This document shows positions 742 to 38,378 of a DNA stretch of 64,000 nucleotides, piece after piece. The translations under genes and the position numbers were made by a program. Under the pieces are notes generated by a model. That model saw nothing but the letters and a program-made list of their open reading frames with translations, did not search any database and was not told where the DNA came from. This stretch comes from Hysterangium stoloniferum (lineage: Eukaryota > Basidiomycota > Agaricomycetes > Hysterangiales > Hysterangiaceae): positions 124,001 through 188,000 of the forward strand of contig WHVD01000039.1 of the NCBI GenBank assembly GCA_015178975.1, given 5' to 3'. Every line of letters starts with the position of its first letter. The first letter of the stretch is position 1.

Positions 742-916
742 GTATCCCCCCATTTGGCTGAAATCCCAAGGAGGCCAAAAATCTAGATTCCATACGTAAA
801 AACTTGTCAGGTGCGGTTGGTGTGTCAAAACATCATGTGACTCGGTAAAAATTTACATATAAAAATTCAAGGGGTACTGGCACTTGATTTTTTTCACTTC
901 TGTTCCCTTGACCACC
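742..916 (+). promoter_or_regulatory. Polypurine tract (minus) overlapping the upstream region of the antisense gene
   Basis: Bases 742-755 read GTATCCCCCC on the plus strand and form the minus-strand polypurine tract beside the 3' LTR. Further right, TACATATAAAAATTC (about 854-868) is a TATA-like box about 50 bp before the ATG at 917. The same layout occurs before the copies at 2531 and 28172. The region therefore seems to serve reverse transcription on one strand and a promoter on the other. The promoter role is inferred from position and conservation. Confidence 0.55.
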
Positions 917-1661
917 ATGACCATAGGTTTGGGGTCGAAGCCATACCCAGTTCAGTTGATGGTCACTCCCATGTCAGTTCTGTGTGGGCCATCTAGTGTG
1001 CAAGAACATCAACAGCTGCTCGAGGAGAAAAGGAAGGTGTGCCAGGAGGAGGAGTGGAAGGAGAAGGAGGAGCTGGTGGCCATAGAGGCCGAGGAAAAGA
1101 AACTGGCAGTGGAAGAGGCTGCGTGCAAGCACTGGGATGCAGTGCTTGCAAAGAAGAAGCAGCAGGAGGCCCATCGGGCACGAGAGGAGGTGGCGAAGAA
1201 GAAGCGAGAGGGAAAGGTAAGTGGGTTCCCATTTCTTTTGTGAACTTTGCTGATTTTTTGTTTTCAGTGCAAGGCCATGACACCTTCAGAGTCCAATGAC
1301 AAAGAGGAAGAGGAGGACGAGGAGGATGTACTGGGGCCGTCAAGCCCCAAGGTGGGTTCGGGTTCCTAATTTTTACATTTTTTCTAAGTTTTTTTGATTA
1401 TAGAAACAAAAACTGGCCCCCAAAGTGGGGCCCAAAAATGACCCAAAGTGCAACCGGTGCACTAAACGGGGTCAGACTTGCCATCCACAGGCAAGTGGTT
1501 GGGGCCGCATCTGTCAAGAGTGTGCCAACCAAAAACTTGGGTGTGTATTCCTGGATGCCGATGGCAATGGGTCCTGCCAAGAACAGCAGGCCAATGCATT
1601 AGAGGAACAAAACCACCTCATGCGCACCTACTTCTCAGAGACGACTGGTTGGAGGTTGTGA
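917..1661 (+). pseudogene. Antisense coiled-coil/Zn2Cys6-like gene of Gypsy element, copy A (3' truncated)
   Basis: Three exons are visible: 917-1216, 1268-1351 and 1404-1661, with two introns of about 50 bp (GTAAGT..CAG, GTGGGT..TAG), all in phase 0. Exon 1 is a charged, Glu/Lys-rich coiled coil of about 100 residues. Exon 2 is an acidic linker ending GPSSPK. Exon 3 carries CNRCTKRGQTC followed by CQECANQKLGC, giving spacing C-x2-C-x6-C-x10-C-x2-C-x6-C, the spacing of fungal Zn(II)2Cys6 clusters. Compared with the 28172 copy, about 90 C-terminal residues are missing; the frame runs into foreign sequence where a D-like LTR begins. It lies opposite in strand to the pol genes of its element family. 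DNA binding is inferred from cysteine spacing only. Confidence 0.7.
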
Positions 1662-2292
1662 GTCGTGAGGTTGTGAGTCAAGATAGGTAAGAGAGATAGA
1701 TGCGCCGGAGCCTGTGGGCTCTGACTAGTGTGAGCGGTGTGATTCAGGTAGGAGTTTAGAGCGGAAAATGGATTAGATTACTGGGGGGAATCTAAACCAA
1801 TTTTCTGACTGGATTGTATGTACAACATCTGCCAGTTTAAATAGACCGTGGAGTGAATGTCATACCAAATCCAGTAATGATGAAACGAAATGAGCAAAAC
1901 ATAAAACAGGAATAGTATACACCAAATTGGTGTTAGGAATGGGATGGAATGGAGCGGAGTCCAAATAGTGACAAATCATAAACCATAACGGGAAATGGAG
2001 CGGGAGCAGAGTCCGAATCGTGACAGGTCATTTGACTAAAATGGGAACAGGTAGAGGGATGGGTTTTCTGAGCAGGGTCCAGTGACTGACATGTGGGATG
2101 AGGTCGGACATAGACAGAGACGGAGTCCTGTGGGTTTTCCGGTGACTGAAACACAACGTAACAAAGTCGAATGTAGACAAGTCTGACGTACAGAGTCCGG
2201 TGGGAATTCTGGTAAACTGATAATGGGTGCATATAGGGTGCGGGTGTGTATAAGTTAGTGCCCAGAGTCTGGCAGGATTTCTGATTGTAACA
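1662..2292 (-). repeat. Gypsy LTR, family D-like (3' LTR of element 2), 5' part degraded
   Basis: The minus strand begins TGTTACAATCAGAAATCC at 2292 and resembles the long family-D LTR at 53788-55238 (repeated ACCGGACTCTG and CCAGTGACTGG blocks). The U5 end is degraded and the boundary near 1662 is uncertain. It is followed at 2293 by GTACCCTCCC, the minus-strand polypurine tract of the next element. Confidence 0.6.
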
Positions 2293-2530
2293 GTACCCTC
2301 CCTTTATGCCGAAGTCCCAAAGAGGCTCTAGACCTCAATAAGGTTCTTGTTGGCTATGTGCATGTGTCAAAAGTCATGTTGGTTACACATGTGTCAAGGA
2401 GTCATGTGATCTGGAAGGTAAGGTTCAAATGCGACAAGCCTATATATAAATTTGAAAAAATAGAAATTTCTTCTTCTTTATTACCCCCATCTTCGACACT
2501 ATGGGACCAAAACCAACACCAAGATGACCC

Positions 2531-3595
2531 ATGCCGACTGCCAGGCCCTCCATGGGCACTCCGTATCGGGCACCTTGGAGTGCAGCCCAACTTTTGGCAT
2601 GGCGAGAAGAGCAGCGCCGTCTTCGTGAAGAAGCAGAGAGGGAAGCCATGGAGGCTGAGGAGGCTTTGGACAGGGAGTGCGAGGCAGCATTGGCCGCAGA
2701 GGAAGAGGCCACAAGGCAGAAGAAACAAGAAGAGGAGGAGGCTGTGTGGGTGGCCACGGAGAAGGCACGGGTGGCTGTGGACAGGGCTGCGGTGGTCGTG
2801 GGAAAGGTAAGTCCCAATTTTTTTTAACTTGTCATTTTTCTTTTCACTGACTTGTTATTTTCAGTCCAAGGTGACAGAGGTCAAGTCCGAGTCCGAGGGG
2901 GAGCCGGAGAGCCCCCAAAAGGTAAGCCTCGGGTCTGTGATAGCCATAGAAACTAACCATATCAACAGAAGGCAAAGAAGGTGGCACCAGTCCATCTTCC
3001 GATGTGGAACAATCTGCACTGTTCTGGTTGCAGTGATTGGAACACAGAATGTAATGGAAAGTCTGGGCGGGGACTGAGGTGCTACCAATGCGCACACCTC
3101 AAGGCGAAGTGCTCGCTCATCCACGAGCAACCCACGGGATCCGGGGCATGGGACGTTAGCGGGACAGATGGGCTGTCCAGGTTGGATGATGTATTGGGGC
3201 AGATTGCCGAGGGCATAGAGGCCCAGAACGAGTTGCTCCGAAGAAGCAACAAGGTCCAAGTTGTGGTGGCGAATGAGCTCCGTGGGCTCTGCTCGGAATT
3301 TTGGAAGTTCCTAGTGGAGTTTGGCAGATATATCTATGAGGAGCCACAAGCCGGGAGTTCCAAGGACACCAGGTTGGATGAGGATGAGGTGCCCGTGGAG
3401 GTAGTGGAGCTTCCTCAAGAGGTGGCTGAGGAGGTGGCGAAAAAACACAGTCTTCATGCAAATACTGAGACCATCATTATTAATCCCCAACCCCGAGTCC
3501 GCTCTCATCTTCATCGGGTACAGGTTTGGCGGTCATGTCTCAGTTTGAGCGCCAAGACTGAGAAAAGTAAAATAGAATTTGATAATAATTTTTGA
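2531..3595 (+). CDS. Antisense coiled-coil/Zn2Cys6-like protein of Gypsy element, copy B (intact)
   Basis: Three phase-0 exons, 2531-2806, 2865-2921 and 2969-3595, are joined by introns of 58 and 47 bp (GTAAGT..TCAG, GTAAGC..CAG), giving about 319 residues without a stop. Residues 1-92 form a Glu/Ala/Arg-rich coiled coil, followed by a short acidic linker. Then comes CSGCSDWNTEC..CYQCAHLKAKC, with spacing C-x2-C-x6-C-x8-C-x2-C-x6-C, matching Zn(II)2Cys6 clusters. A second helical stretch (DDVLGQIAEGIEAQNELLRR) and an acidic tail follow. A TATA-like CTATATATAAATTTG lies about 85 bp upstream. The gene converges on the minus-strand pol, with 162 bp between the stops. An earlier in-frame start cannot be excluded. 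The role is unknown; regulation or chromatin targeting of the element is a guess. Confidence 0.72.
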
Positions 3596-3757
3596 ACATA
3601 AAAGTAAAGCGTGAAAACATAAGAAATCAAAGTCCATGGAGAATCCACTTTAAGGACTTGAAAGACATGTCAGAACCTGTAAAAGCAAAGAGAAACATAG
3701 GGCGACAGGGAATAATGTAAATGAGTCCAAACATAACACGGGGTCCTTGGAGTGGGG

Positions 3758-5945
3758 TTAGAGAGACGATAGTGGTCCAGGTTTGAGTGGGTAAGCTGTA
3801 TGAAAGTCAGTAACGATTTCCATGGCATTACCGAGTTCTGTGGCCAAAATCCATGAAGTCTCTTCATTGGTGCCCTCGTAACCCGCCCACTTGACCAAGT
3901 AAAGCAGTTTACAAGTGCGTCGACACTTGTCAATTTTCAAATCTAAAATTTGTGACATTTCAAACTCGGGTTCTCCGTCAATAATGACCAGAGGAGGTGG
4001 AGATTGCACACGATCTGGGATAGTGTTAGCAGTACAAGGTTCTAACATAGAAACATGAAATACCGGGTGTACCGCATGCATGCTATCCAGAAGCTGTAAA
4101 GTCCAAGAGACTGAACCTACTTGTGCGATAATTTCAAAAGGATCTAAATATTTTTCAGCAAGCTTTTTTGATGGACGGGTAGTCTAGAAGAATTGAGCTT
4201 TGACAAAAACACGATCACCAATATTGAAGTTGGGTGGCGGGATCCGGTGTTTGTCCCCTGAATGTTGGTATTGCTCTTGGGTGGACATTATTGCAGTCCA
4301 GAGTTCCTCGTGGAGCTCGTGGAGGTCCACGGTGAACTCTTGAGTGCAAGCAGAGGCGAGATTTCATTCTGGATGTACTGTAATATTTGGATTATATCCT
4401 TTATTTGCAAAGAATGGGGAAACACCAGTAGTGGCTGAGGGTGCATTGTTGTAAGCAAATTCTGCAAGTGGTAACAAGGATTTCCAATTGTCCTGTTGGT
4501 AATTGCAATATACGCAGAGATATTGTTCCAATGTCTGGTTGACACGTTTGGTTTGTCTGTCACCTTCCGGGTGATATCCGGATGTGAAATGTAATGTCAT
4601 GTCCAAGGATTTCCCAAGGGATCTAAAGAAGTGAGATATGAGCTCTGATCCTCAATCAGAAGTCACGTGGGATGGAACTCCATGCTTGGAAAATACGTGG
4701 ATAATGAAAAGTTCCGCTAACTGCATGGACGTAATTGTGTCATATGTAGGGATGAATATACCTTGTTTTGAGAATCTGTCAACAATGACTAGAATGGTGG
4801 AAAAGCCTTCAGAGTCCGGTAGGTGTTCAATGAAATCCATAAATATAGAATTTCACGGATGTTCCGGTACCGGGAGTTGTTTCAAAAGGCCGTATGGCTT
4901 GTGTCGCTGAGATTTTGAGTGGGGACAAGTAGTGCAACATTTACAATAGTGCTTAATGAATCCACAGAGTCCAGGCCAAGTGTATTCTCTTCTTATTAAT
5001 GATAGAGTTTTGTTGTACCCGAAATGTCCTGAGAGTGGATGATCATGTTTGTATTGAAGGATCCTGAGGCGGAGGCTGTCGGAGTCCGGTACATAGATCC
5101 TATCATCAAGTCTAATGAAACCATGCTGATCAAGAGACCACCAAGGTTGATCGGGGTCCACAGGATTGTCAAGGTGAGCTTTAGTTATTGGGTCTAGCAG
5201 AATTGCCGATAGAATATCTTGATGTAACTTCTCAATGTCCATAATGATAATTCCACGGACAATGGGATTGATGAGGAAAGTTGTGTGGACTGATGTGGTA
5301 AGTTGTTGATTCGTGAAAATAGGTTTCAGGTTGTGCAGGTTTACCATGGCATAGTCGTTGCTCCCCTCTTTAGGATAGACATCCCATCATCTAGTTAAAG
5401 CGTCAGGTTTGCCGCTGAGATGGCAGGGTCGAAAGCAGATAATCATGTTGAAGGCAGATAGATATTCAGATCAGTGGGCCTGCTGGCAGGTCAAATTTTT
5501 TGTGGTAGAAAAGTATTCCAGGTTTTTGTGATGTGTTACAACATCAATAGGAGTTCCCGAGCCTTCCAAATAGTGTTGCCACGCTTTGAAAGCTGAAAAG
5601 ATTGCCAGGAGTTCCTTATCATGAACGTCGTAGTTGAGCTCTGCTCCGGTAAAAGTCCGGGACAGAAAAGCCATGGGGTGAACTTCTCCATCGGAGTCCT
5701 GGATAGACAGAATGGCTCCAAGCACGTAATCCGAGGCATCCATTTCAACAATGAGTGGGAAGTCAGGTTTCCAATGCAACAGAATAGGAGCTGAAGAAAA
5801 AGAATTTTTTAAAAGATTGAAAGCTTTTTGACACTTATCATTAAAATTCTATGGAGTATCCTTATGTGTAAGATGGGTAAGGGGTACCATGATGTTGGAG
5901 TATCCACAGATAAAGCATCAGTAAAAATTGGCAAAGCCGAGGAAG
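3758..5945 (-). pseudogene. Gypsy chromovirus pol, element 2 (RNase H-integrase-chromodomain)
   Basis: Read on the minus strand, the order is the end of RT, then RNase H (about 5779-5471, with MDASDYVLGAIL), then the integrase zinc-binding HHCC region (about 5070-4915). The catalytic core follows (MDFIEHLPDSEG, FHTSGYHPEGD-type region, about 4840-4364), then a C-terminal chromodomain (LLYLVKWAGYEGTNEETSW, about 3910-3860). Stops and frame breaks interrupt it, for example TGA after VTSD and after VHPE. The 5' half (gag, protease, most of RT) is missing: the frame is cut at about 5945, where a reversed piece of the antisense gene is fused. It is convergent with copy B. Confidence 0.85.
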
Positions 5946-6240
5946 GTCTGCACAGTTCCTTCACCACCACAATCTGGACCTTGTTGCTCTTCCGGAGCAA
6001 CTCATTTTGGGCCTCTATGCCCTTGGCAATCCATCCCAAAACCTCATCCAACCCGGACATCCTGTCTGACCCACTGATGTCCTGCACCCTGGACCCTGCG
6101 GCCTGCTCGTAAACAAGTGAGCACCTCACCTTGAGGTGCACACATTGGTAGCAGCCCGGACCCTAGCCAGACTTTTGGTTGCATTCTGTGTTCCGGTCAT
6201 TACAACTGGAACACCGCGGGCCAAGCTGTATGGATCGAAA
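5946..6240 (-). pseudogene. Reversed fragment of the antisense Zn2Cys6-like gene fused to pol
   Basis: The minus strand encodes the end of the six-cysteine cluster (HLKVRCSL) and the helix LDEVLGWIAKGIEAQNELLR, clearly homologous to copy B. Here it points the same way as pol, opposite to its normal arrangement. It is fused directly to RT sequence near 5945. This is a rearranged fragment, not a gene in its own right. Confidence 0.75.
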
Positions 6241-8289: not shown

Positions 8290-8409
8290 TATCCATTATA
8301 TGTTGTGAAAAAATGCATGTTTGGCAGTGGAGAGTTTTGGCTGCTGATCAGAGTATAAAAACTTCCAAATATTCGATTAACAATTTTTCTTTCTTTAACC
8401 ACAACTCGC

Positions 8410-9291
8410 ATGTCCACTTGTCATCCTTTGTTTATCACCACTCTGGAAAATTCAGAAGCCAAAATTGCTGAAACTGCCAAAATGTTGAAAGTCGAAGAAC
8501 TTCAACACAAATGACAGAGGATGGAGGAGGTAAGGCAACAACAAGAGGAGGAGGAGAAGGAATTGATGTGGGAGTTGAAAGAGGTAGAAGAAGTGGAAAA
8601 GTGTGAGCTGGAGCAGATTAAGGTGGAGAAAGAGAAGGAGGAGCAGAAGAGGGAATGGTTTCAGGAAATAGCAGAAGATTGGAGGTTGTGGGATGAGGCA
8701 GAGAAGGAACAGCAGGATGTTGAGACAGAAGAGCAGAGGCTAGAAGAGAAGTGGAACAGAAAGGTGAGTGAACCAGTAATGTTCCATGTGTCTCCAATAA
8801 CAGAAAACAACAGTGGAAAGCTGATGGAGTAGATGAAGAGGAAGAGGCTGGGCCTTCAAGTCTGAAAGTGAGTTGTTTTGTAAAAGTTCTGGAATATGGC
8901 TAATATCCAAAACAGAAACAAAAGACCAGGGCTCCAGAATGTATGGAGACTACCCAAGAAGTTCCATGTCAGTAATGTCTTAGCCAGGACATTACTTGTT
9001 GGAGACAGAAGGCAAAATGTGGTGGAACCTGTTTCCCATGCATGGCAAACAAAACTCCATGCACTCTTGCTGTGAAGTGGACTCCAAAAGGCAAAAGGTT
9101 CAGAAGGTCAAAAAGGTGGGAAAAACAGAGAAGGTGGGAAAAATGGAGAAGGTGGGAAAAATGGAGAAGGTGGGAAAAACAGTGAAGGGGGGGAAAACAG
9201 TGAAGGGGGGAAAAAAAGTGAAGGGGGAAAAAACAGTGAGTGCAGAAACCTTGGAAGCAACCAACCTATGGAAACTGTAGTGTGGAGCATG
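8410..9291 (+). pseudogene. Antisense coiled-coil/Zn2Cys6-like gene, copy C, 5' part
   Basis: Exon 1 (8410-8763) encodes a Glu/Lys-rich coiled coil with one in-frame TGA. Exon 2 (8814-8867) is the acidic linker ending GPSSLK. Exon 3 starts at 8916. The introns are 50 and 48 bp (GTGAGT..CAG). The cysteine cluster is still readable, spacing C-x2-C-x6-C-x10-C-x2-C-x6-C, with TAA inside the first C-x2-C. A GTATAAAA box precedes it at about 8351. An 18-bp tandem repeat (about 9100-9240) adds a Lys/Gly-rich stretch. The gene is cut at 9291 by the CACTA-like insertion and resumes at 13632. Confidence 0.68.
9100..9240 (+). repeat. 18-bp tandem repeat in copy C
   Basis: About eight copies of a unit like GAAGGTGGGAAAAACAGT lie within exon 3. 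The unit is a multiple of three, so it keeps a frame (Lys-Val-Gly-Lys type repeats). It is absent from the other copies. Confidence 0.75.
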
Positions 9292-10080
9292 CACTGGAGG
9301 CACCCCAAGATTTTTGGAGTTGGAAAACCTTCAGAAAATCTTGTTATTTGGCCAAATTTTCTAAGTGTTTTGTGAATTGAAAAACTCTTTGAAAATTCTG
9401 AGTTTTAGTAGGTTTTTCTGAGGCCAAAAATTGGATCTGAAAATTCTAAAAGTTTGCATCAGGAAATTATGAGGAAATATTGTTGGAAATAGCCTATTCT
9501 TTATGGATTTTCTGAATAAGAAAACTTTTAGAAAACCCTGTATTTTGTTAGGATTTTTCCACCTAACAAAATCCTATGAAAACTGTAATAATGTGCCTAG
9601 AGAAATCAATTGAAAACCACATATTTCTACTTAATTTTGCCCCTGAGGGAATTCAGTGAAAACTATGGTTTTCTGCCTGAAAAAATCTTGAGCCAAGGCA
9701 AAGTTTTTTTAATGTTTTGTCAAGGGGAAAACCATGATGAAGTTTACAATTTAATTATACATAAAATCATTGAATAATTATATATTCCAACAAAATTTTC
9801 CTTGGTCACAAATACTATGGAAATTCAAAAAATCTATTTGTGAAATCATGAAGAAATTGATGATTTTCCATGAGTTTCTTAGAGGTTTTTCAAGGTGAGA
9901 AACCCTGAACTGATGTTTTGCAATTCAGCACGATTCACAAATATTCAAAAGGATACAGTGCAATTCAGTGCAATTCGCAAATATTTGAAAAGATACAATG
10001 TGATTCATTACAATTTGCAAGTGTTCGGGAATATTCAATGCGATTTGCAAGTTTTCAGGAGGCTAGAGTGCAACTCTTTT
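9292..10080 (+). repeat. Left terminal inverted repeat of CACTA-like element
   Basis: It is a near mirror image of 12840-13631, AT-rich, with many short purine/pyrimidine motifs (AAAACC, GGTTTTC) typical of subterminal repeat regions. No gene is seen in it. Confidence 0.8.
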
Positions 10081-10690
10081 AGACTTTTTGCGACTCTTTT
10101 GGACTCTTTGCGACTCTTTTGGACTCTTTGCGACTCTTTTGGACTCTTTGCGACTCTTTTGGACTCTTTGCGACTCTTTTGGACTCTTTGCGACTCTTTT
10201 GGACTCTTTGCGACTCTTTTGGACTCTTTGCGACTCTTTTGGACTCTTTGCGACTCTTTTGGACTCTTTGCGACTCTTTTGGACTCTTTGCGACTCTTTT
10301 GGACTCTTTGCGACTCTTTTGGACTCTTTGCGACTCTTTTGGACTCTTTGCGACTCTTTTGGACTCTTTGCGACTCTTTTGGACTCTTTGCGACTCTTTT
10401 GGACTCTTTGCGACTCTTTTGGACTCTTTGCGACTCTTTTGGACTCTTTGCGACTCTTTTGGACTCTTTGCGACTCTTTTGGACTCTTTGCGACTCTTTT
10501 GGACTCTTTGCGACTCTTTTGGACTCTTTGCGACTCTTTTGGACTCTTTGCGACTCTTTTGGACTCTTTGCGACTCTTTTGGACTCTTTGCGACTCTTTT
10601 GGACTCTTTGCGACTCTTTTGGACTCTTTGCGACTCTTTTGGACTCTTTGCGACTCTTTTGGACTCTTTGCGACTCTTTTCGATTCTTTG
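10076..10690 (+). repeat. 20-bp minisatellite, about 30 near-perfect units
   Basis: The unit CGACTCTTTTGGACTCTTTG is repeated about 30 times with almost no variation. Every unit keeps its CpG, so expansion looks recent. Because 60 bp is 20 codons, several frames stay open and give false long ORFs. A degenerate mirror array lies at 12360-12850. Confidence 0.95.
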
Positions 10691-10695
10691 CCACT

Positions 10696-11720
10696 CTTTA
10701 AGATGAAGGAAAACTTCAACTCCAAGTACCCCGATACATCTACCGCCCCCGCCCCAACCACAGCTGCAAGACGCGCCGCACCGATGCCTCGCCCTACGAC
10801 ACCTCCATCTCGCCGCACGACTTCCCCGCCGATGAGTACGGCAGCGTCTCCCCCGTCGACGGCGCACCCTACCGCCTCCCCTACGGGCTCGCCACGGCCT
10901 ACTACTCCAGCAGCAGCCACTACACCGATGCCGTGCCCGCGCTGAACGGACCCGCCGTCCACGCGGACCCCGACAACCACTTCCCCCCCGCCGCGACATG
11001 GCACCCCGCCTTCCCCAAGCTGGGGCACACGCACGGCGGTCACCGGCCCCACGGGCCGCAAGGACACGAGTATGGGCCGCACGACCATGGACAGGGACAT
11101 GGGCACGGGCACGGGCACGGGCACGGGCCGCACGGCGGCGGCGGCGGCGGTGATGGACATGGACACGGGAACGGGCCTACGACACGCTGCACGCGATCGC
11201 GCACGGCGGCGCGCACCCCCGTACCACGCGCAGAACTGGTCCGACGAGACCGGCTCGAGCGCGGACTTTGGGGGCTTCCCGCCTGGGCTTGGTAGCGGCG
11301 CCGCGGGGAACGGCGGGAGCAGATACGGCAGCCTCGGCGGGAGCGGTGGCAGTGGTGCGGGGAACGGGAGTAGGGGCGGCAGCGGCGGAGGGGGTGGGGG
11401 CGGCACGCTGGGGCTTGGGACGCTGACGGCGCCGTTTTTCCCGCAGGGCCCTGGGGGCTCGCCGAGCACCACCACGACCAGCTCAAGCGGTGTGGCGGGG
11501 GGCGGATCGGGCGCGGAGGTGGGGCCGGGCCATTTCTCGCGGGGAGGCGTGCGACTCGCACCACACGTCGTATACTGGCTCGCATCACCCGCACACGTCG
11601 ACGACGCGCCAGTCGTACCAGCACCCGTCGGGCCCGGGGACCACGCTTGCGCTGTCCCCCGCAAATGTGCAGCATGGCAGTCTGTGGAGCAGTATGCGGA
11701 CGATGAAAACGGAGATATGA
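10696..11720 (+). pseudogene. HMG-box transcription factor, captured 3' fragment
   Basis: The fragment opens with the end of an HMG box: KMKENFNSKYP, then after a 1-bp frame break RYIYRPRPNHSCKTRR, the basic tail typical of sequence-specific HMG boxes. The rest is a low-complexity C-terminus (Ser/Tyr-rich, a His-Gly repeat near 11095-11170, Gly-rich runs, Ser/Thr-rich) ending METKTEI-like TGA at 11718-11720. At least three further frame changes separate the readable parts. GC content is far above the surroundings. The N-terminal part and most of the HMG box are replaced by the minisatellite. The source is probably a host regulator gene of the sexual-development HMG type, but the exact family is not certain. 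Confidence 0.72.
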
Positions 11721-12350
11721 ATAGGATGGATGAGTGATCACGTTTCGCCATCGTCTCCTCTGGCCGGCTCCGTTTGGTTATCCCCCCCCACTTCTATTGC
11801 TATCCTCTCCAGCTAGACTTGGAGTTGGATTCCCTTTTTCTTGATCAGCATATTATATCACACCATCACGCCCACAGCACCTCTCCCCGCCTTGTCACCC
11901 CGCCCCAGCCAGCACTGCGCCAGCTTTCAAGATTTATACAAGTAAAAAGTATATTCTACTTAATATAACCAATGTCTCGTTTATATCCTGCACCTGATGA
12001 TACTGGTATTGATACTCAACTACCTGTACCTACCCACCATCACCCCAGCCTCCCCCCTGCCGCTGCCGCCATCTTGGATACTGCCTGCCCCAAGCCCCAT
12101 TTTCTTGTTCCATGCCATCATCCCCCAGCTTCAAATTCACATGCGATGTGTACCTCCTACTGTATATCAGGTTTGCTGCGGCTTCTTCTTAACATACATT
12201 ATCTATATAATTGACAGTGATGCGTTTTTTTCCTCCCTTTGTCCATGTGCTGTGTGTATAGTGTATCATTGTTTGTGGTCATAGAGAAAAGAGGATAATA
12301 GAAATTTTGGAGGCTTTTTACATAGATTATTATTGTGTGAAGACACTGCT
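11721..12350 (+). other. Probable captured 3' flank of the HMG-box gene
   Basis: C/T-rich, mixed-composition DNA without transposon motifs lies between the HMG fragment stop and the right inverted repeat. It is probably the 3' untranslated and downstream sequence of the captured gene. No convincing ORF. Confidence 0.45.
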
Positions 12351-12359
12351 ATGATTTGT

Positions 12360-12850
12360 AACACTTTTGTGACTTTTTGCAACATGACTTTTTGCGATAC
12401 TTTGTGACTTTGTGCGACACTTTGTGACTTTGTGACACTTTGCGACTTTGTGCAACTTTGTGCAACTTTGTGTGACTTTGTGCGACTTTGCAACTTTTCA
12501 AAGAGTCACAAAGAGTAAGTCGCAAAGAGTCTAAAAAAGTCGCAAAGAATCTAAAAGAGTCGCAAAGAATCTAAAAGAGTCACAAAAAGTTGCAAACAGT
12601 CTACATGAGTCACAAAGAGTCTATAACAGTTGCGAAGAGTCTATAACAGTTGTAACAAGTCTATAAGAGTCATAAAGAGTCTAAAAGAGTCACAAAGAGT
12701 CCAAAAGAGTCGCAAAAAGTCCAAAAGAGTCGCAAAAAGTCCAAAAGAGTCACAAAAAGTCCAAAAGAGTCACAAACAGTCTATCAGAGTCGCAAACAGT
12801 CGCAAACAATCACAAAGAGTCTAGAATAGTTGCAAAAAGTCTAAAAGAGT
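12360..12850 (-). repeat. Degenerate minisatellite, mirror of the 10.1-10.7 kb array
   Basis: Units of about 20 bp (AGTCGCAAAGAGTCTAAAAG type) vary mainly at the CpG: AGTCGC, AGTCAC and AGTTGC forms all occur. The contrast with the uniform left array shows one side was recently expanded or homogenised. Confidence 0.85.
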
Positions 12851-13631
12851 TGCATTCTAGCCTCCTGAAAACTTGCAAATCACATTGAATATTCCCGAAC
12901 ACTTGCCAATTGTAATGAATCACACTGTATCTTTTCAAACATTTGTGAATCACACTGAATCGCACTGTATCCTTTTGAATATTTGCGAATCGTGCTGAAT
13001 TGCAAAACATCGGTTCAGGGTTTCTCACCTTGAAAAACCTCTAAGAAACTCATGGAAAATCATCAATTTCTTCATGATTTCACAAACAGATTTTTTGAAT
13101 TTCCATAGTGTTTGTGACCAAGGAAAATTTTGTTGAAATATATAATTATTCAATGATTTTATGTATAATTAAATTGTAAATTTTGTCATGGTTTTCCCCT
13201 TGACAAAACATTAAAAAAACTTTGTCTTGGCTCAAGATTTTTTCAGACAGAAAACCATAGTTTTCACTGAATTCCCTCAGGGGCAAAATTAAGTAGAAAT
13301 ATGTGGTTTTCAATTGATTTCTCTAGGCACATTATTACAGTTTTCATAGGATTTTGTTAGGTGGAAAAATCCTAACAAAATACAGGGTTTTCTAAAAGTT
13401 TTCTTATTCAGAAAATCCATAAAGAATAGGCTATTTCCAACAATATTTCCTCATAATTTCCTGATGCAAATTTTTAGAATTTTCAGATCCAATTTTTGGC
13501 CTCAGAAAAACCTACTAAAACTCAGAATTTTCAAAGAGTTTTTCAATTCACAAAACACTTAGAAAATTTGGCCAAATAACAAGATTTTCTGAAGGTTTTC
13601 CAACTCCAAAAATCTTGGGATGCCTCCAGTG
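12840..13631 (-). repeat. Right terminal inverted repeat of CACTA-like element
   Basis: Reverse complement of 9292-10080; ends GGATGCCTCCAGTG at 13631, followed by target repeat ATG. Confidence 0.8.
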
Positions 13632-14061
13632 ATGGACAATGACACCAGTATCAGACTCCTCAGAGATACCATCAACACGATGGTACTCATTGGGATGGAG
13701 TTGATGAAGGCTTGGGGAATCTTAGAGTGCCATAATGACATCCAAGAAAGGGGATTCTGGTTGATGAATTGGAACTTCTGGAGAGAGAATGAATTCTTGG
13801 AAAAGGTAATGGTCAGTATCAGCATAATCACAGTTTCTGAAAGATACACCAATAAGAAAAAAGATGAGCTGAATGGTCCATTGGTGGATATGGTTGAAAA
13901 GAGGTGGGTGTTGGGAGAAAAGCTATAAAGTGAAGATGAGGAGGTGCAGGAAATGGTGGAGGGAGTGGAAATTGGAGCAGAGATTGCCAATGAGAGAGGA
14001 GTTGAAGTGGAGGAGGGATTTGAACGACCAGAAACATTGAAGTACTTGTATCTTTATTTTT
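13632..14061 (+). pseudogene. Antisense gene copy C, 3' part after the CACTA-like insertion
   Basis: Coding resumes with a helical region (DNDTSIRLLRDTINTMV) and an acidic C-terminus (EDEEVQEMVEGVEIG), broken by one TAA and ending at TAA near 14061. It converges with the pol remnant, which ends at about 14182 (about 120 bp apart). Removing the insertion and one ATG joins it to the 9291 end, though the tandem repeat has already shifted the frame. Confidence 0.6.
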
Positions 14062-14181: not shown

Positions 14182-15231
14182 TCAGAGTGCCAATAAAGGT
14201 CCCAGTTTACTAGGATAAGTGGTGTGGAAGTTGGTTATAATTTCCATAGCATGTCCAAGTTCCATGGCCAATATCCATGAAGCTTCTTTGTCAGTACCTT
14301 CGTAGCCTGCCCATTTGGCTAAATAGAGCAATTTACAAGTACATCAGTGATTGTTGATTTTAGAATCCGAAATCTCAGAAACTTCAAATTTGGGTTCTCT
14401 GTCAATGATGACTGGCAGAGGCAGAGGCTGAGTATGTTCTGGGATGTTGTTAGGAACACAGGACTCTAACATGGAAATGTGGAAAACAGGATGAACTGCT
14501 CACATACATACTATCAGGAAGTTGGAGAGTCCAGGAAAGTGAGCCAGCTTGTGCTATGATCTTGAAAGGTCCTAAGAATTTCTCAGCAAGTTTTTTGGAA
14601 GGTTGGGTAGTTCAGAAGAATTGAGCTTTTACAAAAATGTGGTCTCCAATCTTGAAGTTAGGAGGCAGGAGTCTGTTTTTATCTGTGGAATGTTGATAAT
14701 GTTCCTGGGTGGAAGAAATAGCTTTCTGAAGTTCCTGGTGTAACTCATTGAGGTCAGTAATAAATTCTTGAGCACAAGCAGATGCAAGATCTCATTTGGG
14801 ATGTATTGTAAGATTAGCATTGTATCCTTTATTGGCAAAGGAGAGATGCTGGTAGTGGCATTCAGAGAGTTATTGTAAGCAAATTCCATGAGCAGAAAAA
14901 GGGATTTTCAGTTGTCCTGTTAATAGTTGCAATAAATGCAGAGGTATTGTTCCAGGATGTGGTTGACATGTTCCATTTGTCTGTCACCTTCCAGATGATA
15001 TCCCAAGGTGAAGTGTAATTTCATATTGAGAGCTTTTCTGAGAGCCTTGAAGAAATGGGAAATAAACTTGGAACCTTGATTGGAAGTTATGTGAGATGGA
15101 AGACCATGTTTGGAAAATATGTGAATGATAAAAAGTTCCACTAGTTGCAAGGATGTGATTGTATCATGAGTGGCTATGAAAATTCCCTGTTTCGAGAATT
15201 GGTCTATCTCACTCATGTCATGCCATCTCAC
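14182..15231 (-). pseudogene. Gypsy chromovirus pol, element 3 (integrase-chromodomain)
   Basis: The minus strand encodes integrase core (GIFIATHDTITS, HIFSKHGLPSHITS, FTLGYHLEGDRQ) and, near 14290-14360, a chromodomain (LLYLAKWAGYEGTDKEASW). Many stops are present. Upstream parts are missing: the frame is cut at about 15231 by the 19-bp minisatellite. Confidence 0.8.
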
Positions 15232-15430
15232 TCACGTTGCGCTACCTCACTCACGTTGCGCTACCTCACTCACGTTGCGCTACCTCACTCACGTTGCGCT
15301 ACCTCACTCACGTTGCGCTACCTCACTCACGTTGCGCTACCTCACTCACGTTGTGCTACCTCACTCACGTTGCGCTACCTCACTCACGTTGCGCTACCTC
15401 ACTCACGTTGCGCTACCTCACTCACTGTAA
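15213..15430 (+). repeat. 19-bp minisatellite
   Basis: About ten copies of CTACCTCACTCACGTTGCG sit exactly where the integrase reading stops. The copies are near identical, with one CpG changed to TpG (GTTGTGC at about 15351). Confidence 0.95.
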
Positions 15431-15960
15431 GGGCAACCCCTGCAGCCTGCAGTACTCACACTAGGCTAGCAGGAGGGAATCCAAAGATATATTAGAACTA
15501 ATACATACATACAGACAACTACCTAACTCACCTAGCAGGAGGGAATCCAAAGAGAAACAGTCTAAGGAATTCCCCCTGCCAGGTGTGACCCATAGGCACC
15601 CAGTAGTCTAAAAATAACTTTACCTATTACAGAACAGAGGTTCTTCCCACAATGTAATATTACTCCTATGAACTTCTGAAGTTAGTCCTCTACTCTACAT
15701 ATTAGCCAGAGTGGTTGATATCCACAAGGAGAGGGAGTGTGACAAAGGCAGGGGTTGGACTGTGGACTCAGGAACTTCAATGAGATGAGAAAATGGTACT
15801 TCCTAGGGTTTGTGACAGAGAGTCCCCTGACACTCACAACCTCACTCACATTGCACAACCAGGCACATTACATCACAAATGCAGACTCACACACCACCTC
15901 ACTTGTATCCTAGCTTTCCCGTGGTGTTATGGTCAAGCAGATGTTGTGCCTGTCACCAGT
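15431..15960. other. Intergenic DNA, no gene seen
   Basis: A direct repeat of AGCAGGAGGGAATCCAAAGA occurs at about 15468 and 15535. A few further CTCAC repeats occur near 15838-15900. No coding signal. Confidence 0.5.
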
Positions 15961-27999: not shown

Positions 28000-28171
28000 G
28001 TATCCCCCCATTTGGCTGAAATCCCAAGGAGGCTGAAAATCTAGATTCCATATGTAAAAACTTGTTGGGTATGGGTGGTGTGTCAAAATGTCATGTGACC
28101 CGGTAACAATTTACATATAAAAATTCGAGGGGTTCTTGCACTTGATTTTTAACTCTCTTCCCTCAACCACC

Positions 28172-29164
28172 ATGACCCTTGGCTCGGGGTTGAAGCCTTT
28201 CCTGGTTTGGTTAACAGTTGCTCCCATGTCGGCTCTGAGTGGACCATTGAATGCTCAAGAGCATCGACGTCTTCTCGAAGAGAAGAGGAAAGTGTGCGAG
28301 GAGGAGGAGCATAAGGAGAAGGAGGAGCTGGCAGCCATAGAGGCAGAGGAGAAGAAACTGGCAGCAGAAGAGGCTGCGTGCAAGCACTGGGATGTGGTGC
28401 TTGTGAAGAAAAAACAACGGGAGGCTGATCTGGTGTGAGAGGAGGAGGAGAAGAAGAAGCGGGAGGGTAAAGTAAATCGGATTCCCTTTTCTTTTGCGAA
28501 TCTTGCTGACCTTTTCCACAGTGCAAGGGAGTGATGCCTTCGGAGTCCAATGACATGGAGGATGAGGAGGATGAGGAGGGTGTACCGGGGCCGTCAAGCC
28601 CCAAGGTGGGTTCAGGTTCCTGTCATTTTAGTTTTCTAATTTTTTTGATTATAGAAACAAAAAGAGGCCCCCAAGGCAGGGCCCAAAAATGACCCAAAGT
28701 GCAACCGGTGCACTAAATGGGGTCAGACTTGCCATCCACGGGCAAGTGGTTGGGGCAGCACCTGTCAAGAGTGTGCCAACCAAAAGCTCAGGTGTGTATT
28801 CCCGGATGCTGACGGGAATGGGTCCTACCAAGAATGGCAGGCCGATGCTCTAGAAGAGCAAAACCACCTCATGCACACCTTTTTCTCGGAGACGATGTGG
28901 TTCCAGTTTGAAACTCTGTGACAACAAGGTTTGATGACTGAACAACTGCGACTTTTGGGCATGGGGCTGGAGAAACAAACCAGTGCCATAGAGTCTCTCA
29001 GGGAGCAACTCGAGCAGTATCTAGAAGTGTCAAGTTGCAATGGAGTTGGGCCTGGAGTTGGGGTATCGGAAAAGGTCAGTGAGGAGGTGTTGGTGGCCAT
29101 CAGTGAGGGGGAAGGCTTGGAGGCTGGAGAAGAAGGGGAAGTTGTAGAGGAAACCTTTAGGTAG
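28172..29164 (+). pseudogene. Antisense coiled-coil/Zn2Cys6-like gene, copy D
   Basis: Three phase-0 exons, 28172-28471, 28522-28605 and 28655-29164, have the same intron positions as copies A and B (introns 50 and 49 bp). Exon 1 is a coiled coil (LLEEKRKVCEEEEHKEKEEL). Exon 2 is an acidic linker ending GPSSPK. Exon 3 has CNRCTKWGQTC and CQECANQKLRC, with spacing C-x2-C-x6-C-x10-C-x2-C-x6-C. A helix (LRLLGMGLEKQTSAIESLRE) and an acidic tail follow. Two in-frame TGA codons (28436, 28919) are each best explained as CGA or CAA changes. A TATA-like TACATATAAAAATTC precedes the ATG, which sits in CCACCATGA. The stop is 88 bp from the pol stop on the other strand. Function unknown. Confidence 0.72.
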
Positions 29165-34044: not shown

Positions 34045-37000
34045 TTATCTCAAGCTCAATCCTTCTCGTAATCTTTGAAGATTTGGCCCGGGTAATGCTT
34101 TGGTAAAAATATCCGCTATGTTCTTGGAGGTAGGGCAGTACTGGAGTTGGAATATATTATTCTTCACAAGGTCACGGATGAAGTGATATCTGAGGTCGAT
34201 ATGCTTGGTGCGTGCGTGAAACTTGTTGTTCGATGCTAATGCTATTGCTCCTTGATTATCACAGTAGACTGGGATGGCTTCTTCCACTGGCTCATATAAT
34301 TCGCTGAGTAGGGTCTTGATATATAGGATTTCCCGTGCTACTGAGGTGAGCGCTATATATTCTGCTTCAGCTGTTGATAATGCAATCAAGGATTGTTTCC
34401 TAGAACTCCATGCAACTGCCATGCCATGCAACATGATCACATACCCAGACATTGAATGTCTGTGGGGTTGGCTTGCCCAATCCGCATCTACAAAAGCTTC
34501 TAGGCGTTGATTTGTTGTTCCTAAGGTGAGTTTTAGGTTCTTCGTCCCTTTTAAATAGTGTATGACTCGTTTTGCAGCTTTCCAATGCATTTTTGTCGGT
34601 TCTCGCATGAATTGTGAAAGTATTGACACGGCAAAAGCAATATCGGGTCGTGTACTGGTTGCAGCGTACATTAGTGATCCAATTGCTCTTTGATATGGTA
34701 CGTCTTTGAATTGAGTATTTCCCAATTGATCCTGTTTCAGGTTTATACCAGTTTCCATTGGCGTTTGGGCTGTTTTTGCTTCTTCAAGATGAAAACGTTC
34801 AACAATTGTGTTGATATATGCCTCCTGGGACAATGTCATGGTTCGTTTTTCTCTATTTCTTTCGACTTTGAGTCCCAATAGCCAGGTAAGTTCGCCTAAA
34901 TCAGTGATTTCAAAATGTTCCTTGAGCTGATCCTTGAATTTGATAATATGTTTTAGGTTGTTTGATGTTATTCCCATATCGTCAACAGATACAGTTACAA
35001 CTGTATGTTCTTCATTTTCCCGTTTGAAGTAAATGGCCTTGTCGACTTGTGAGCGGTTATACTCTGCATCCAAAAAAAAAGTTTCCAGTTCTTCTGACCA
35101 TTCAAAACCAGCTTGTTTTAGTCCATATAGGCTGTGTAGGAGTTTCAATACCTTCCCCTCTTCTCCTGGTTGAAGATATCCAGGTGGTGCCCTCATGTAT
35201 ATTTCGTCTCTGAGCTTGGCATTCAGGTATGCACTTTTAATATCCACTTGATGTATTTCCCAGTTTTGATGTGCTGCCATTGTCAGAACGACTCGAATTG
35301 CTGACATGTTGGACGTGGGTGCAAAGGTTTGTGAATAGTCTATGCCGTATTCTTGATGTTGACCATTCGCCACTAGACGTGCTTGTAGTTTTATCTTCTT
35401 CCCATCTGGTCCTCGTTTTGTTGCAAGTATGAAATGGCAGGGTATGATATTTGCTCCTTGAGGTGCATCTACTTTTTCCCATGTTCCCAATTTCTCCAAT
35501 TGACCTATTTCGTAGTCAATTGCTGCTTGCCATTCAACTGCATCTGGTCCATTCAATGCTTCCTTCATTGTTGGTTCTGCATTTGCAGCTGCTGCGGCCC
35601 AATGGATTGTGGAACCTATTTCTTGTTCTTCCGGTAATTCTTCTATTGCAGCTGATGCCATCTGTCCCTGGTTTAATGCTTTATAATAGCCTGCTGGGGG
35701 TTGCACTCGAGTTACTCTTGGGGTTGTTGGCATTGGAAGTGTTTGCACACTTTGCGGTGGTGTTGCAGGGGTTGGTGCTGATGGTATGTCGTGCTGGATG
35801 TTACTCTGGACATTGTCTTCTGGGACTGTTTCCCATGACTCCCCCTCATCCAGTATGTTGTCTTGAATATTGATTTTTGTAGGTATGAAACTGATGTTTC
35901 GTTCAACTGAAATTCGTCATTTCTCAGGCCAATATATTCGAAATCCCTTGCTTTGTTCATCCACACCCACAAATAGAGCTTCCTCAGCTCGTGCTTCAAG
36001 CTTTCCGGTGTCATCTAGGTGGATATACACTTTCATGCCAAATTCATGTGCTTGGGCTAGGTTGGCCTTTGTCCCATGTACGAGGTCATATGGAGTGTGT
36101 CCGGGGATGGCTGTTGAAGGTAATCAATTTTTCAACCATGTAGCGTAATTAATGGCTTCAGCCCATAGGAATTTTGGGATGTTTTGGCCTAGTAACATGG
36201 CTCATGCATGTTCAACAAGTGTCCGATTGAGTCTTTCAGCAACTCCGTTCTGTTGAGGTGAATTATGCACTGTAAGTTGTCTTTCAATTCCTTGTTCCTT
36301 CAAGTATTGATCGAAATCTGCACTTAGGTACTCGCCTCCACGGTCCGAACGTATCCTTTGTAATTTTGATCCAGGATGTTGTCATGAAATATTCCGTTCA
36401 TAATGTTTAAATGCCGAAAAGGCCTCTCCTTTATGCTTCAGAAAGGTGAGTTTCGTTTCGCGACTGTAATCATCAGTAAAACTGATGTAGTATTGACTCC
36501 CTCCTAGGCTTGTAGTTTGTGCTGGTCCCCACAAATCTGTGTGTACAAGTTCCCCATACGTCTTTGCTCGATTTTTCGTTTTCTCTGGAAATGGCTGACA
36601 TACTGCTTTTGCTTGTGTGCAGGTATCGCAAAATTCTGGCTTAGAGGTAGTGTCAACATCGACACCTTCAACCAGTCCTTTCTTTATAGCATCGAGTATT
36701 GCTTCTTGTGATACATGTCCCAGAGTTCGATGTAGTGCACATATGGTAGGTTTTGATTTTGCAATATTTGCTTGATGCTGACTTTTTGTAGTGATGCGGT
36801 ATAGTCCATCGATCTGTGGGATTATTGCAATAAGCTTTTGATTTGGATTTGGGGATAATATCTTGCATATTTTGTTTTCAAACAAAATTGTGTATCCTGC
36901 TGTTGCGATTCGATTTGCTGAGATGAGTGTAAACGCCATTTTTGGGGTGTAGAGAGTATTTTTGAGGGTAATGGAACTCTTCTTGTCTCCCACTGGTAAG

Positions 37001-37614
37001 TTTATTTGTACATCTCCTTTTCCTATGGCACTAATAGCAGATCCGTCTGCAGTGTGCACTTGCTGTGGGTCCATAGGGGTGAAGGTAACGAATTTCGATC
37101 GGTCGGGGCAGAAGTGTGATGTGGCACCTGAATCAATAATTGCATCTCGTTGGTTGACAGATATGTTTTTAGCTGTATCTGATGTTGAGAATGCATAATG
37201 ATCTTTGTTTGTTTCAGTGAGTGCATTCACGATTTCCTTCTTTGCGCCCTTCTGTTGCCCTTGTTTGGGTCCTTGACCTTCCTTTCCTCCTCCAGCCCTC
37301 CAACAGTCAGCCTTGTAGTGACCCTTTCTGTCACAATTGTAACAGGTAATATCCTTGTTACTTGATATGCGATCCTTCTTGCCATTTGCCTTTACCATTA
37401 AGGCACTATTTCCTCCTTTCTTTGAGGTCCTTTGATCTGTTAATAGACGATGTTCATACTCCTCGGAGATGACATTAATGAGTTCGTATGGGGTGAGTGG
37501 TTGTTTCGTGATACGTGCTGCAGCATTTATTGATGAGAGCAGTGGTCTGTAGGATTCGGGTAATGATCCCATTACTATTGCGTAAAAATCCTTATCCTCG
37601 ATATTTGCTCCCAT
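34045..37614 (-). pseudogene. Copia element G gag end-protease-integrase-RT-RNase H
   Basis: One minus-strand frame runs from 37614 to 34045. It contains the Gag zinc knuckle CYNCDRKGHYKADC (about 37350), the retropepsin motif DSGATSHF (about 37130) and the GAG-pre-integrase HRTLGHVS (about 36715). The integrase core start HTDLWGPA (about 36540), an RT with SVDDMGITS (about 34980), and an RNase H ending near 34045 (YCDNQGAIALASN, HIDLRYHFIRD) follow. Four in-frame stops (36382, 36202, 36124, 35917) are all TGA. The remaining stretches are well preserved, in keeping with the young LTRs. Confidence 0.92.
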
Positions 37615-38114: not shown

Positions 38115-38139
38115 GTTCGTAGGTTCGGGGCCCATAACC
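38115..38139 (-). other. Primer-binding site of Copia element G
   Basis: Directly inside the 5' LTR the minus strand reads GGTTATGGGCCCCGAACC. This is complementary to the anticodon-arm side of initiator tRNA-Met (..GGGCCCATAACC), not to a tRNA 3' end. It suits the half-tRNA priming known for Drosophila copia. Confidence 0.55.
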
Positions 38140-38378
38140 TGTTGTAATTTATATTTGAGCGAGTGAGAGCTAGAGAGATAATAATATCTTTTGGGTTTTT
38201 CGGACTGATTTATTCGCATGTTGTTTTCTATCCTATATACTATGTACCGGTAATGTCGGTTCCATACTGATTCCTAATCTTTTACCAATGCTATGTTTTA
38301 TTCTCTATTATAACTGTGCTCGGACTTATTCTTTGTCCGATATCCGACTTCAGACTTCAAACTCCGACAATCTCAACA
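38140..38378 (-). repeat. Copia element G, 5' LTR
   Basis: 239 bp, followed by target repeat GGAAT. Lacks 8 bp relative to the other LTR (GGTAATGTCGG versus GGTAATGGTATGTTGCCGG). Confidence 0.95.

What the first reader, a model, noticed from the sequence alone, without database searches (positions are those of the whole stretch)
742..3758. Chromoviral Gypsy elements carry a spliced antisense gene with a Zn(II)2Cys6-like cluster
Four copies (917, 2531, 8410, 28172) sit between the polypurine tract/3' LTR and the chromodomain end of pol, on the strand opposite to pol. Where pol is present (copies B, C, D) the stops converge 90-160 bp apart. All share three exons in phase 0, an N-terminal coiled coil, an acidic GPSSPK linker and six cysteines spaced C-x2-C-x6-C-x8/10-C-x2-C-x6-C. 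That spacing is the fungal binuclear zinc cluster, normally found in host transcription factors, not in Gypsy elements. It is kept in copies whose surroundings have decayed, and each has its own TATA box. An ambisense retrotransposon with its own putative DNA-binding protein would be a notable arrangement; I know of antisense ORFs in some plant elements but not of this one.
Basis: partly seen in the sequence, partly recalled or inferred. Interest (0 to 1): 0.88.

Follow-up and report, generated by a model that had tools for sequence, protein, structure and literature searches.

The report
Spliced antisense gene in fungal retrotransposons
A family of jumping genes in this fungal-type genome carries, on its reverse strand, a conserved intron-containing gene for a small cysteine-rich, probably DNA-binding protein, which suggests that these elements make their own regulator.

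Summary
Chromodomain Ty3/Gypsy elements carry a three-exon gene on the strand opposite to gag-pol, between pol and the 3' LTR. Three family queries gave 1174, 897 and 325 first-look candidates; the 150 scored of each all match. Two young elements (LTRs 0 and 4 mismatches apart, 5-bp target duplications) have open gag, pol and antisense gene. Splice sites are kept in 47-50 of 51 copies per family; exon lengths stay mostly in multiples of three while introns do not. CpG-corrected pN/pS is 0.15 in the coding frame, 1.5-2.1 in the other two, 0.8-1 in introns. So it is a spliced, protein-coding gene under purifying selection.

The zinc-cluster reading is only partly supported. Six cysteines with Zn2Cys6 spacing are the conserved core, but every Pfam Zn_clus bit score shown is below the cut-off, cysteine-preserving shuffles can score as high, and models are low-confidence. 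In the window itself every copy is damaged.

Antisense genes at this place are known in plants and in Botrytis Boty elements. I found no print for the spliced structure or the cysteine cluster. Best reading: a self-encoded nuclear regulator of the element.

The parts
917..1661 (+). Copy A of the antisense gene (A/D family): exons 917-1216, 1268-1351, 1404-1661; exon 3 truncated after the cysteine block
2501..3595 (+). Copy B of the antisense gene: exons 2501-2806, 2865-2921, 2969-3595; in-frame TGA at codon 9
   Evidence: exon 3 gives 1174 first-look candidates in the genome, 150 scored
3758..3760 (-). Stop codon of the pol frame of element B; 162 nt from the gene's stop
   Evidence: by comparison with L061
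5953..6219 (-). Fifth copy: fragment of exon 3 (cysteine block and following helix), one stop
8410..9291 (+). Copy C of the antisense gene, a third divergent family: exons 8410-8763, about 8804-8867, 8916 onward; several stops; exon 3 interrupted
13632..13928 (+). Continuation of exon 3 of copy C behind the 4.3-kb insertion, up to its first stop
   Evidence: (frame from 13632), compared with L106-L108
28172..29164 (+). Copy D of the antisense gene: exons 28172-28471, 28522-28605, 28655-29164; one TGA in exon 1, one in exon 3
822..865 (+). Promoter-like region of copy A: GTGTCAAA (822), TCATGTGA (833), TATA box (858)
2364..2450 (+). Promoter-like region of copy B: GTGTCAAA (2364), TCATGT (2374), TCATGTGA (2402), TATA box (2441-2450)
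8354..8361 (+). TATA box of copy C; the upstream motif of the other two families was not found here
28080..28123 (+). Promoter-like region of copy D: GTGTCAAA (28080), TCATGTGA (28091), TATA box (28116)
742..752 (-). Region next to the LTR that reads GGGGGGATA on the element's sense strand, position of the polypurine tract
   Evidence: corresponding place in L061 and L062; function inferred from position

Best explanation
Shown by sequence: chromodomain Ty3/Gypsy elements of this genome are ambisense. gag and pol are read from one strand; a separate three-exon gene, with its own TATA box and (in two families) a shared upstream motif, is read from the other strand, from the 3' LTR side towards pol, and encodes a protein of about 290 aa: charged helical N-terminus, acidic linker, basic patch, six-cysteine block, C-terminal heptad helix. 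It is selected as a protein. Because the introns lie antisense in the genomic RNA they cannot be spliced out of it, so each new copy carries the intact split gene, as in the antisense-intron reporter cassettes used to detect retrotransposition (recalled). Inferred: the cysteine block binds zinc and nucleic acid, the C-terminal helix dimerises, and the protein works in the nucleus on the element's own LTR or leader, as an activator or anti-silencing factor in a host that marks these elements with CpG-directed mutation. Transcription from the 3' LTR side would let the regulator be made independently of the sense promoter.
For: Position and strand: 28 of 30 and 28 of 30 fetched copies have pol on the opposite strand downstream, 24 of 30 and 26 of 30 have the LTR upstream; 22 of the 25 pol hits that are 100% identical over the whole 180-aa query have a gene hit listed on the other strand, 0.2-0.6 kb away (one search read by eye; those lists are truncated). 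Young complete elements L061 and L062. Splicing: donor GT in 49-50 of 51 copies per family, acceptor AG in 47-49 of 51; exons 1-3 are a multiple of three in 38, 49, 44 of 51 (B) and 42, 46, 22 of 51 (D; exon 3 is 39 of 51 over its first 450 nt, the ends differ), introns only in 18 and 15, 16 and 13 of 51; no intronless match among the listed rows of a cross-exon search. Selection: pN/pS 0.15 (CI 0.12-0.20 and 0.12-0.19), shifted frames 1.5-2.1. Promoter: TATA in 46 of 51 and 43 of 51 copies, motif GTGTCAAA-n-TCATG in 42 of 51 and 39 of 51 (shuffled: 0 and 0); leader is the least divergent noncoding part measured (0.040, 0.037). Cysteine core: six Cys, one Gly and one Lys are the only fully invariant columns in 21 chosen rows, 12 D-type, 8 B-type and one C-type. 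C-terminal helix.
Against: No RNA or protein evidence at all. Zinc and DNA binding rest on cysteine spacing: Pfam bit scores shown below cut-off and none listed for the whole exon 3 of L062, shuffles score alike, PDB profile hits to Pho7, Leu3 and Gal4 only at E 1.3-6.7 behind an unrelated protein at 0.34, none at all with the single L061 exon, the cysteine block modelled at pLDDT 34-40 in the long model and 63 overall in the short one, no fold match. Basic residues expected between the second and third cysteine of Zn2Cys6 proteins (recalled) are not kept in the B and C families. No target site was found: CGG pairs are enriched in the L061 LTR but in its gag-pol too; in the L062 LTR only one of three arrangements passes the 95% shuffle level, 7 against 6. 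Only 15 of 51 and 14 of 51 spliced frames are open to the reference end (for D this may undercount, since 17 copies of one length have a different C-terminal end). Between the families the gene's pN/pS is 0.53 against 0.19 for pol. The third family was seen only in damaged copies.
Confidence: 0.5

Rival explanations
1. The protein is an accessory replication or particle protein, for example a second nucleocapsid-like RNA chaperone or Gag partner, rather than a DNA-binding regulator.
For: Gag of both young elements has only a weak zinc knuckle (zf-CCHC_2 19.0 bits against a cut-off of 27 in L061, 12.2 in L062), so a separate cysteine protein could assist; the charged helix and cysteine block suit RNA binding as well.
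Against: Encoded on the other strand behind its own promoter-like region rather than with gag-pol; cysteine spacing is that of a binuclear cluster, not a CCHC knuckle; basic patch at the exon 2-3 junction suggests nuclear import (inference).
Confidence: 0.2
2. The product that matters is the antisense RNA (silencing or masking of the sense RNA); the open frame is incidental.
For: Antisense transcripts with such roles are discussed for plant elements (PMC7264820, passages).
Against: Selection is frame-specific: pN/pS 0.15 against 1.5-2.1 in the other frames of the same bases, introns 0.80-0.98. RNA-level selection does not do that.
Confidence: 0.04
3. The gene is an independent or captured host gene that rides along passively (recent capture, no function for the element).
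For: Host-like genes with Zn_clus domains exist in this genome (42 matches from 83 scored candidates).
Against: Three families have it at the same place, and B and D types are only about 24-36% identical in exon 3, so the association is old; pN/pS is as low as that of pol in the same copies. Of two fetched Zn_clus loci, L103 shows no pol frame by eye and L104 only a pol fragment next to a tandem-cysteine frame unlike this gene (no search was run on them).
Confidence: 0.06
4. The protein is an immunity or copy-number control factor: it limits the element or its rivals rather than helping it.
For: Silent sites of the gene are about three times as diverged as those of the neighbouring pol in the same pairs of copies (also third positions), as expected of an exchangeable specificity module.
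Against: Such diversity can also arise by template switching between co-packaged RNAs; nothing shows repression.
Confidence: 0.15

Closest known systems
Antisense additional ORFs (aORF-3R) of plant LTR retrotransposons: maize Grande gene23, rice RIRE2, Retand (passages of PMC7264820 and PMC11963269 seen)
   Same: Gene between pol and 3' LTR, antisense to gag-pol, present in most copies; own upstream promoter and nuclear protein reported for Grande; DNA binding suspected for the Retand TRP28 domain
   Different: Plant lineages (Retand a non-chromovirus) with TRP28 or unknown domains; Pfam TRP28 (PF04195) was not among the matches of exons 1 and 3 here; the words intron and zinc were counted zero times in the main text of both papers
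Boty-like elements of Botrytis cinerea with antisense gene brtn (Zhao et al. 2011, seen only as a reference entry; mentions in passages of PMC8365987 and PMC4227169)
   Same: Fungal LTR element with a chromodomain in its gag-pol product and an additional antisense gene
   Different: Sequence and exon structure of brtn not held, so homology is untested; no cysteine cluster is mentioned in the passages seen
HTLV-1 HBZ (mentioned in PMC11963269; splicing and bZIP nature recalled)
   Same: Antisense, nuclear regulatory protein made from the 3' LTR side
   Different: bZIP, not cysteine cluster; promoter inside the LTR; a retrovirus
Zn(II)2Cys6 fungal transcription factors (Pfam Zn_clus PF00172; Pho7, Leu3, Gal4)
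   Same: Six cysteines C-x2-C-x6-C-x9/10-C-x2-C-x6-C; a Lys four residues after the fifth cysteine also stands there in Pho7 (alignment)
   Different: Below the Pfam cut-off; basic residues in the first half not kept in all families; cluster lies mid-protein behind a long charged helix
VANC anti-silencing proteins of VANDAL transposons (abstract starts of PMC5735166 and PMC10398659 seen in the listing)
   Same: Transposon-encoded protein that counters silencing of its own element (here hypothesis only)
   Different: Arabidopsis elements, DNA transposons (recalled); no sequence comparison made

Membership tests
Chromodomain Ty3/Gypsy LTR retrotransposon | gag, protease, RT, RNase H, integrase and chromodomain in this order, LTRs, 5-bp target duplication | tested here: met
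   L061: gag, RVP_2, RVT_1, RNase H, rve and Chromo (27.7, cut-off 25.1) over cut-off; L062: the same but Chromo 23.4, just below. LTRs 0 and 4 mismatches; 5-bp duplications GCTGA and GTTGC read by me
[quoted passage not shown]
   28 of 30 and 28 of 30 copies; young elements
Antisense aORF between pol and 3' LTR | Transcribed from its own promoter | not testable with these tools
   Only sequence signs: TATA 46 of 51 and 43 of 51, shared motif in two families
Retand-type TRP28 protein | Pfam PF04195 match | tested here: not met
   Not among Pfam matches to E 10 of exons 1 and 3 of L061 and L062
Botrytis brtn | Sequence homology to BRTN | not tested
   brtn sequence not available here
Zn(II)2Cys6 (PF00172) | Cysteine spacing C-x2-C-x6-C-x(5-12)-C-x2-C-x(6-8)-C (range recalled) | tested here: met
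   Invariant in 21 chosen rows, 12 D-type, 8 B-type, 1 C-type; 4 of 6 invariant and 2 at 90% or more in 29 chosen rows; 2 of 5 fetched older C-type copies have lost one cysteine
Zn(II)2Cys6 (PF00172) | Pfam gathering score 21 bits | tested here: not met
   10.2-14.7 bits, 12.5 for the cut L062 piece, no Zn_clus match for the whole L062 exon 3; 20 of 21 rows match at E<=1, best 0.0023, their bit scores not shown; 2 of 10 cysteine-preserving shuffles reach 13.2 and 13.8 bits, both from the B sequence
Zn(II)2Cys6 (PF00172) | Basic residues between second and third cysteine (recalled) | tested here: not met
   B type reads CNDRNTEC, C type CVSQGITC; D type has CTKRGRTC. The invariant Lys lies in the second half
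Zn(II)2Cys6 (PF00172) | Fold: two CxxC helices around a two-zinc cluster | tested here: inconclusive
   48-residue model has helices 11-18 and 34-39 at the two CxxC motifs, but pLDDT 62.9 and pTM 0.35; Foldseek 0 matches; only 1 chain could be aligned
Zn(II)2Cys6 (PF00172) | Sequence-specific DNA binding | not testable with these tools
   No specific site enrichment established

The most novel reading that the evidence does not exclude
A whole clade of fungal retrotransposons is ambisense and carries a spliced, self-encoded zinc-cluster regulator that recognises each family's own LTR or leader and protects it from, or activates it against, host silencing; the regulator behaves as an exchangeable specificity module, older and more diverse than the pol genes beside it.
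Probability: 0.3. Interest if true: 0.82.

Novelty: new variant of a known kind. Interest (0 to 1): 0.64.

Why it matters
Antisense genes in LTR retrotransposons have been described for years, and the papers seen here still call their roles unknown. This is one with several hundred copies in a single genome, clear purifying selection on the protein, conserved introns and promoter-like motifs, and a recognisable cysteine framework, so it is a tractable case: expression, target sites and effect on silencing can all be tested. The introns would make expression from the antisense strand directly visible in RNA data, and their presence shows that the gene is inherited through the unspliced genomic RNA.

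Tried and rejected
Zn_clus as a proven family: rejected for now. CGG-pair target sites in the LTR: L061 is enriched but so is its gag-pol; in the L062 LTR only the everted arrangement is just over the 95% shuffle level (7 against 6); GGAGTCC repeats (5 in the L061 LTR) also occur throughout that element and only once in L062, inside the gene; left as a lead. Host Zn_clus genes as relatives in the same position: the two fetched loci (L103, L104, of 42 matches) do not look like it by eye. Intronless (processed) copies: (1417 candidates, 150 scored, 171 matches, list cut) no listed row covers the whole 91-aa query; rows that start before exon 3 are mostly intron 2 read through, as the row of L061 itself shows; three rows (C222, C93, C246) cross exon 2 to 3 with 24-48 extra bases, so intron 2 may be partly lost in one. 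First pol-against-gene correlation used untrimmed columns and was replaced. One search stopped with an error and was redone. Structure prediction of the full exon 3 gave pLDDT 48.4. Host identification by rRNA failed. Literature searches for a zinc cluster or antisense gene in basidiomycete or other fungal Gypsy elements turned up no description apart from Boty/brtn in the papers listed: (listings capped; most subscription papers not held).
Full report
WHAT IS THERE. The window lies in a 111.1-Mb assembly of 554 contigs. Four copies of a three-exon gene lie on the + strand at 917, 2501, 8410 and 28172; beside B, C and D there is a pol frame on the minus strand. A fifth fragment is at 5953-6219 on the minus strand. 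All window copies are damaged: A is truncated, B has a stop at codon 9, C has stops, an out-of-phase exon 2 and a 4.3-kb insertion, D has two internal stops.

INTACT ELEMENTS ELSEWHERE. Exon 3 of B gave 1174 first-look candidates, of D 897, a piece of C 325; 150 were scored each time and all 150 matched (the sets may overlap, and the unscored rest is unconfirmed). Two stretches of 9.5 kb, L061 (B-like) and L062 (D-like), hold complete young elements: LTRs of about 820 and 720 bp with 0 and 4 mismatches, 5-bp target duplications, gag of 438 and 441 aa, pol of 1304 and 1302 aa with protease, RT, RNase H, integrase, SH3_Tf2-1 and chromodomain (that of L062 just under the Pfam cut-off), and the antisense gene open in three exons, 294 and 292 aa. 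Between the two, identity is 59% in gag, 78% in pol and 34% in the antisense protein.

IT BELONGS TO THE ELEMENT. Of 30 B-type and 30 D-type copies (window copies B, D and A among them), 28 and 28 have pol on the opposite strand downstream, 0 and 1 have a pol match on the same strand, 24 and 26 have the LTR upstream. Of five older C-type loci, L106-L109 have pol matches on the other strand and L110 only a weak one. From the pol side, 22 of the 25 pol hits at 100% identity over the whole query have a gene hit listed on the other strand; one of the three others lies at a contig edge and the lists are cut (compared by eye).

IT IS SPLICED. In 51 copies per family (B: L001-L030, L061, L063-L082; D: L031-L060, L062, L083-L102) the donor GT is kept in 49 and 49 (B) and 50 and 50 (D), the acceptor AG in 47 and 47 and in 49 and 49. 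Exons 1, 2 and 3 are a multiple of three long in 38, 49 and 44 of 51 B copies and in 42, 46 and 22 of 51 D copies; the low last figure comes mostly from 17 copies of one length whose C-terminal end and stop (four were printed) differ from L062's, and over the first 450 nt of D exon 3 it is 39 of 51. Introns are a multiple of three in 18 and 15 (B) and 16 and 13 (D) of 51, about chance. The spliced frame is open to the reference end in 15 of 51 and 14 of 51. A query across all three exons gave no listed row that covers it whole (three rows cross exon 2 to 3 with 24-48 extra bases). This is what antisense introns in a genomic RNA predict.

IT IS A PROTEIN GENE UNDER SELECTION. Copies decay largely by CpG change (CpG observed/expected 0.47 in the window, 1.07 and 1.11 in L061 and L062). 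I therefore left out every position in CG, TG or CA. Using nearest pairs without reuse (22 B pairs, 21 D pairs; pairs with under 500 shared columns, or outside 1-20% difference, dropped), pN/pS is 0.15 in both families (CI 0.12-0.20, 0.12-0.19); frames +1 and +2 give 1.72, 2.14 and 1.54, 1.92; introns read as codons 0.98 and 0.80; the pol C-terminus in pol-nearest pairs (11 and 10) 0.36 and 0.30, and the gene in those same pairs 0.28 and 0.22. Without the CpG filter the ratios by divergence bin are 0.28-0.42, still well under 1. Exon 2 of D alone is uninformative (0.32, CI 0.10-2.26). Between L061 and L062 the ratio is 0.53 for the gene, 0.40 for gag and 0.19 for pol, with silent sites near saturation. 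The C family was not tested: the copies seen are damaged, and four of six (window C, L106, L108, L110) share a stop between the first two cysteines.

IT HAS ITS OWN PROMOTER-LIKE REGION. TATA occurs within 90 nt before the start in 46 of 51 and 43 of 51 copies, mostly at -56 to -60. Upstream, GTGTCAAA, 1-4 nt, TCATG occurs in 42 of 51 and 39 of 51 copies (0 and 0 in base-shuffled controls) in both families, but not in window copy C. The leader between LTR and gene is the least divergent noncoding part measured (0.040 and 0.037).

THE PROTEIN. The only fully invariant columns of a 21-row alignment (12 D-type, 8 B-type, 1 C-type; rows chosen, without stops) are six cysteines, one Gly and one Lys; in a 29-row alignment of B and D types four cysteines are invariant and two at 90% or more. 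Spacing is C-x2-C-x6-C-x9/10-C-x2-C-x6-C. Pfam Zn_clus matches 20 of 21 rows at E 1 or better, but all bit scores shown are under the cut-off and the whole exon 3 of L062 gives no Zn_clus match; shuffles that keep only the cysteines reach 13.2 and 13.8 bits in 2 of 10, so the match carries little beyond spacing. A PDB profile search lists Pho7 (two entries), Leu3 and Gal4 among five hits, at E 1.3-6.7, behind an unrelated first hit at 0.34 (that the second entry is also Pho7 is my reading of the near-identical sequence); the single L061 exon finds no such protein. A 48-residue model shows two short helices at the CxxC motifs with pLDDT 62.9; fold search found nothing. The exon 3 model has one long helix, residues 67-123, with pLDDT 76-82 over residues 71-110, and the cysteine block at 34-40; heptads are good in the C-terminal part and poor in exon 1. 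A basic patch follows the acidic linker at the exon 2-3 junction (KKARK, KKQK), possibly a nuclear signal (inference).

AN UNEXPECTED PATTERN. In the same pairs of copies, silent divergence of the gene is about three times that of the adjoining pol (medians 0.359 against 0.111 for the 22 of 31 B copies that passed the filter; 0.350 against 0.116 for 16 of 31 D copies). Third positions of the gene differ by 0.23-0.29, those of pol by 0.04-0.15, introns by 0.13-0.29, the leader by 0.04, LTR pieces by 0.08-0.17: the gene stands out against pol and leader, less against parts of the LTR. Correlation between pol and gene distances is 0.26 and 0.67 by rank of silent divergence, 0.08 and 0.19 by raw distance. 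The sample was picked by similarity of the gene, which should work against this. Exchange of the 3' module between elements (template switching) is my favoured reason; long-lived diversity of a specificity module is the bolder one.

HOW IT LIKELY WORKS. Shown by sequence: strand, splicing signals, selection, promoter-like motifs. Inferred: zinc and DNA binding, dimerisation through the C-terminal helix, nuclear action on the element's LTR or leader, most likely to activate it or shield it from silencing. I put about 0.5 on a DNA-binding regulator of the element itself.

WHAT IS KNOWN. [quoted passage not shown]) and in Botrytis Boty elements (brtn, Zhao et al. 2011, not read; mentions in PMC8365987 and PMC4227169, passages seen). 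In PMC3248453, a survey of fungal LTR elements, the word antisense was counted zero times (passages seen). I found no account of a spliced or cysteine-cluster antisense gene in the listings of searches. The host is taken to be a fungus, perhaps an agaricomycete, from recalled resemblance of pol; no call tested this.

Noticed in passing
window 38420-50410 and 52012-64000: Inverted repeat with arms of about 12 kb, 99-100% identical, 1.6 kb apart and running to the window end: a very recent palindromic duplication or an assembly artefact.
   Followed up: no
window 9292-13631: 4.3-kb insertion with 1.1-kb inverted arms (93%) and a 10/20-bp minisatellite inside, sitting in exon 3 of copy C.
   Followed up: partly
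L001-L062, gene against pol: Silent divergence of the antisense gene is about threefold that of the neighbouring pol in the same pairs of copies.
   Followed up: partly
L061 LTR 656-1476 and whole element: GGAGTCC repeated 5 times in the LTR and many times elsewhere in the element, 20 of the 22 sites listed for the locus in one orientation; a single site in L062.
   Followed up: partly
window 8973-8975; L106, L108, L110: Window C and three of five fetched C-type copies share a stop between the first two cysteines, perhaps an inherited truncated form.
   Followed up: no
G000 C56, C113, C115: Clusters of frames with Zn_clus matches over the Pfam cut-off, some with two or more tandem domains; L104 shows such a tandem frame.
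   Followed up: partly
window 34045-38273, minus strand: Copia-type element (RVT_2, Pol_BBD, gag_pre-integrs).
   Followed up: no
window 15215-15440: Tandem repeat of a CTCACTCACGTTGCGCTAC-like unit directly beside the pol remnant of the copy C element.
   Followed up: no
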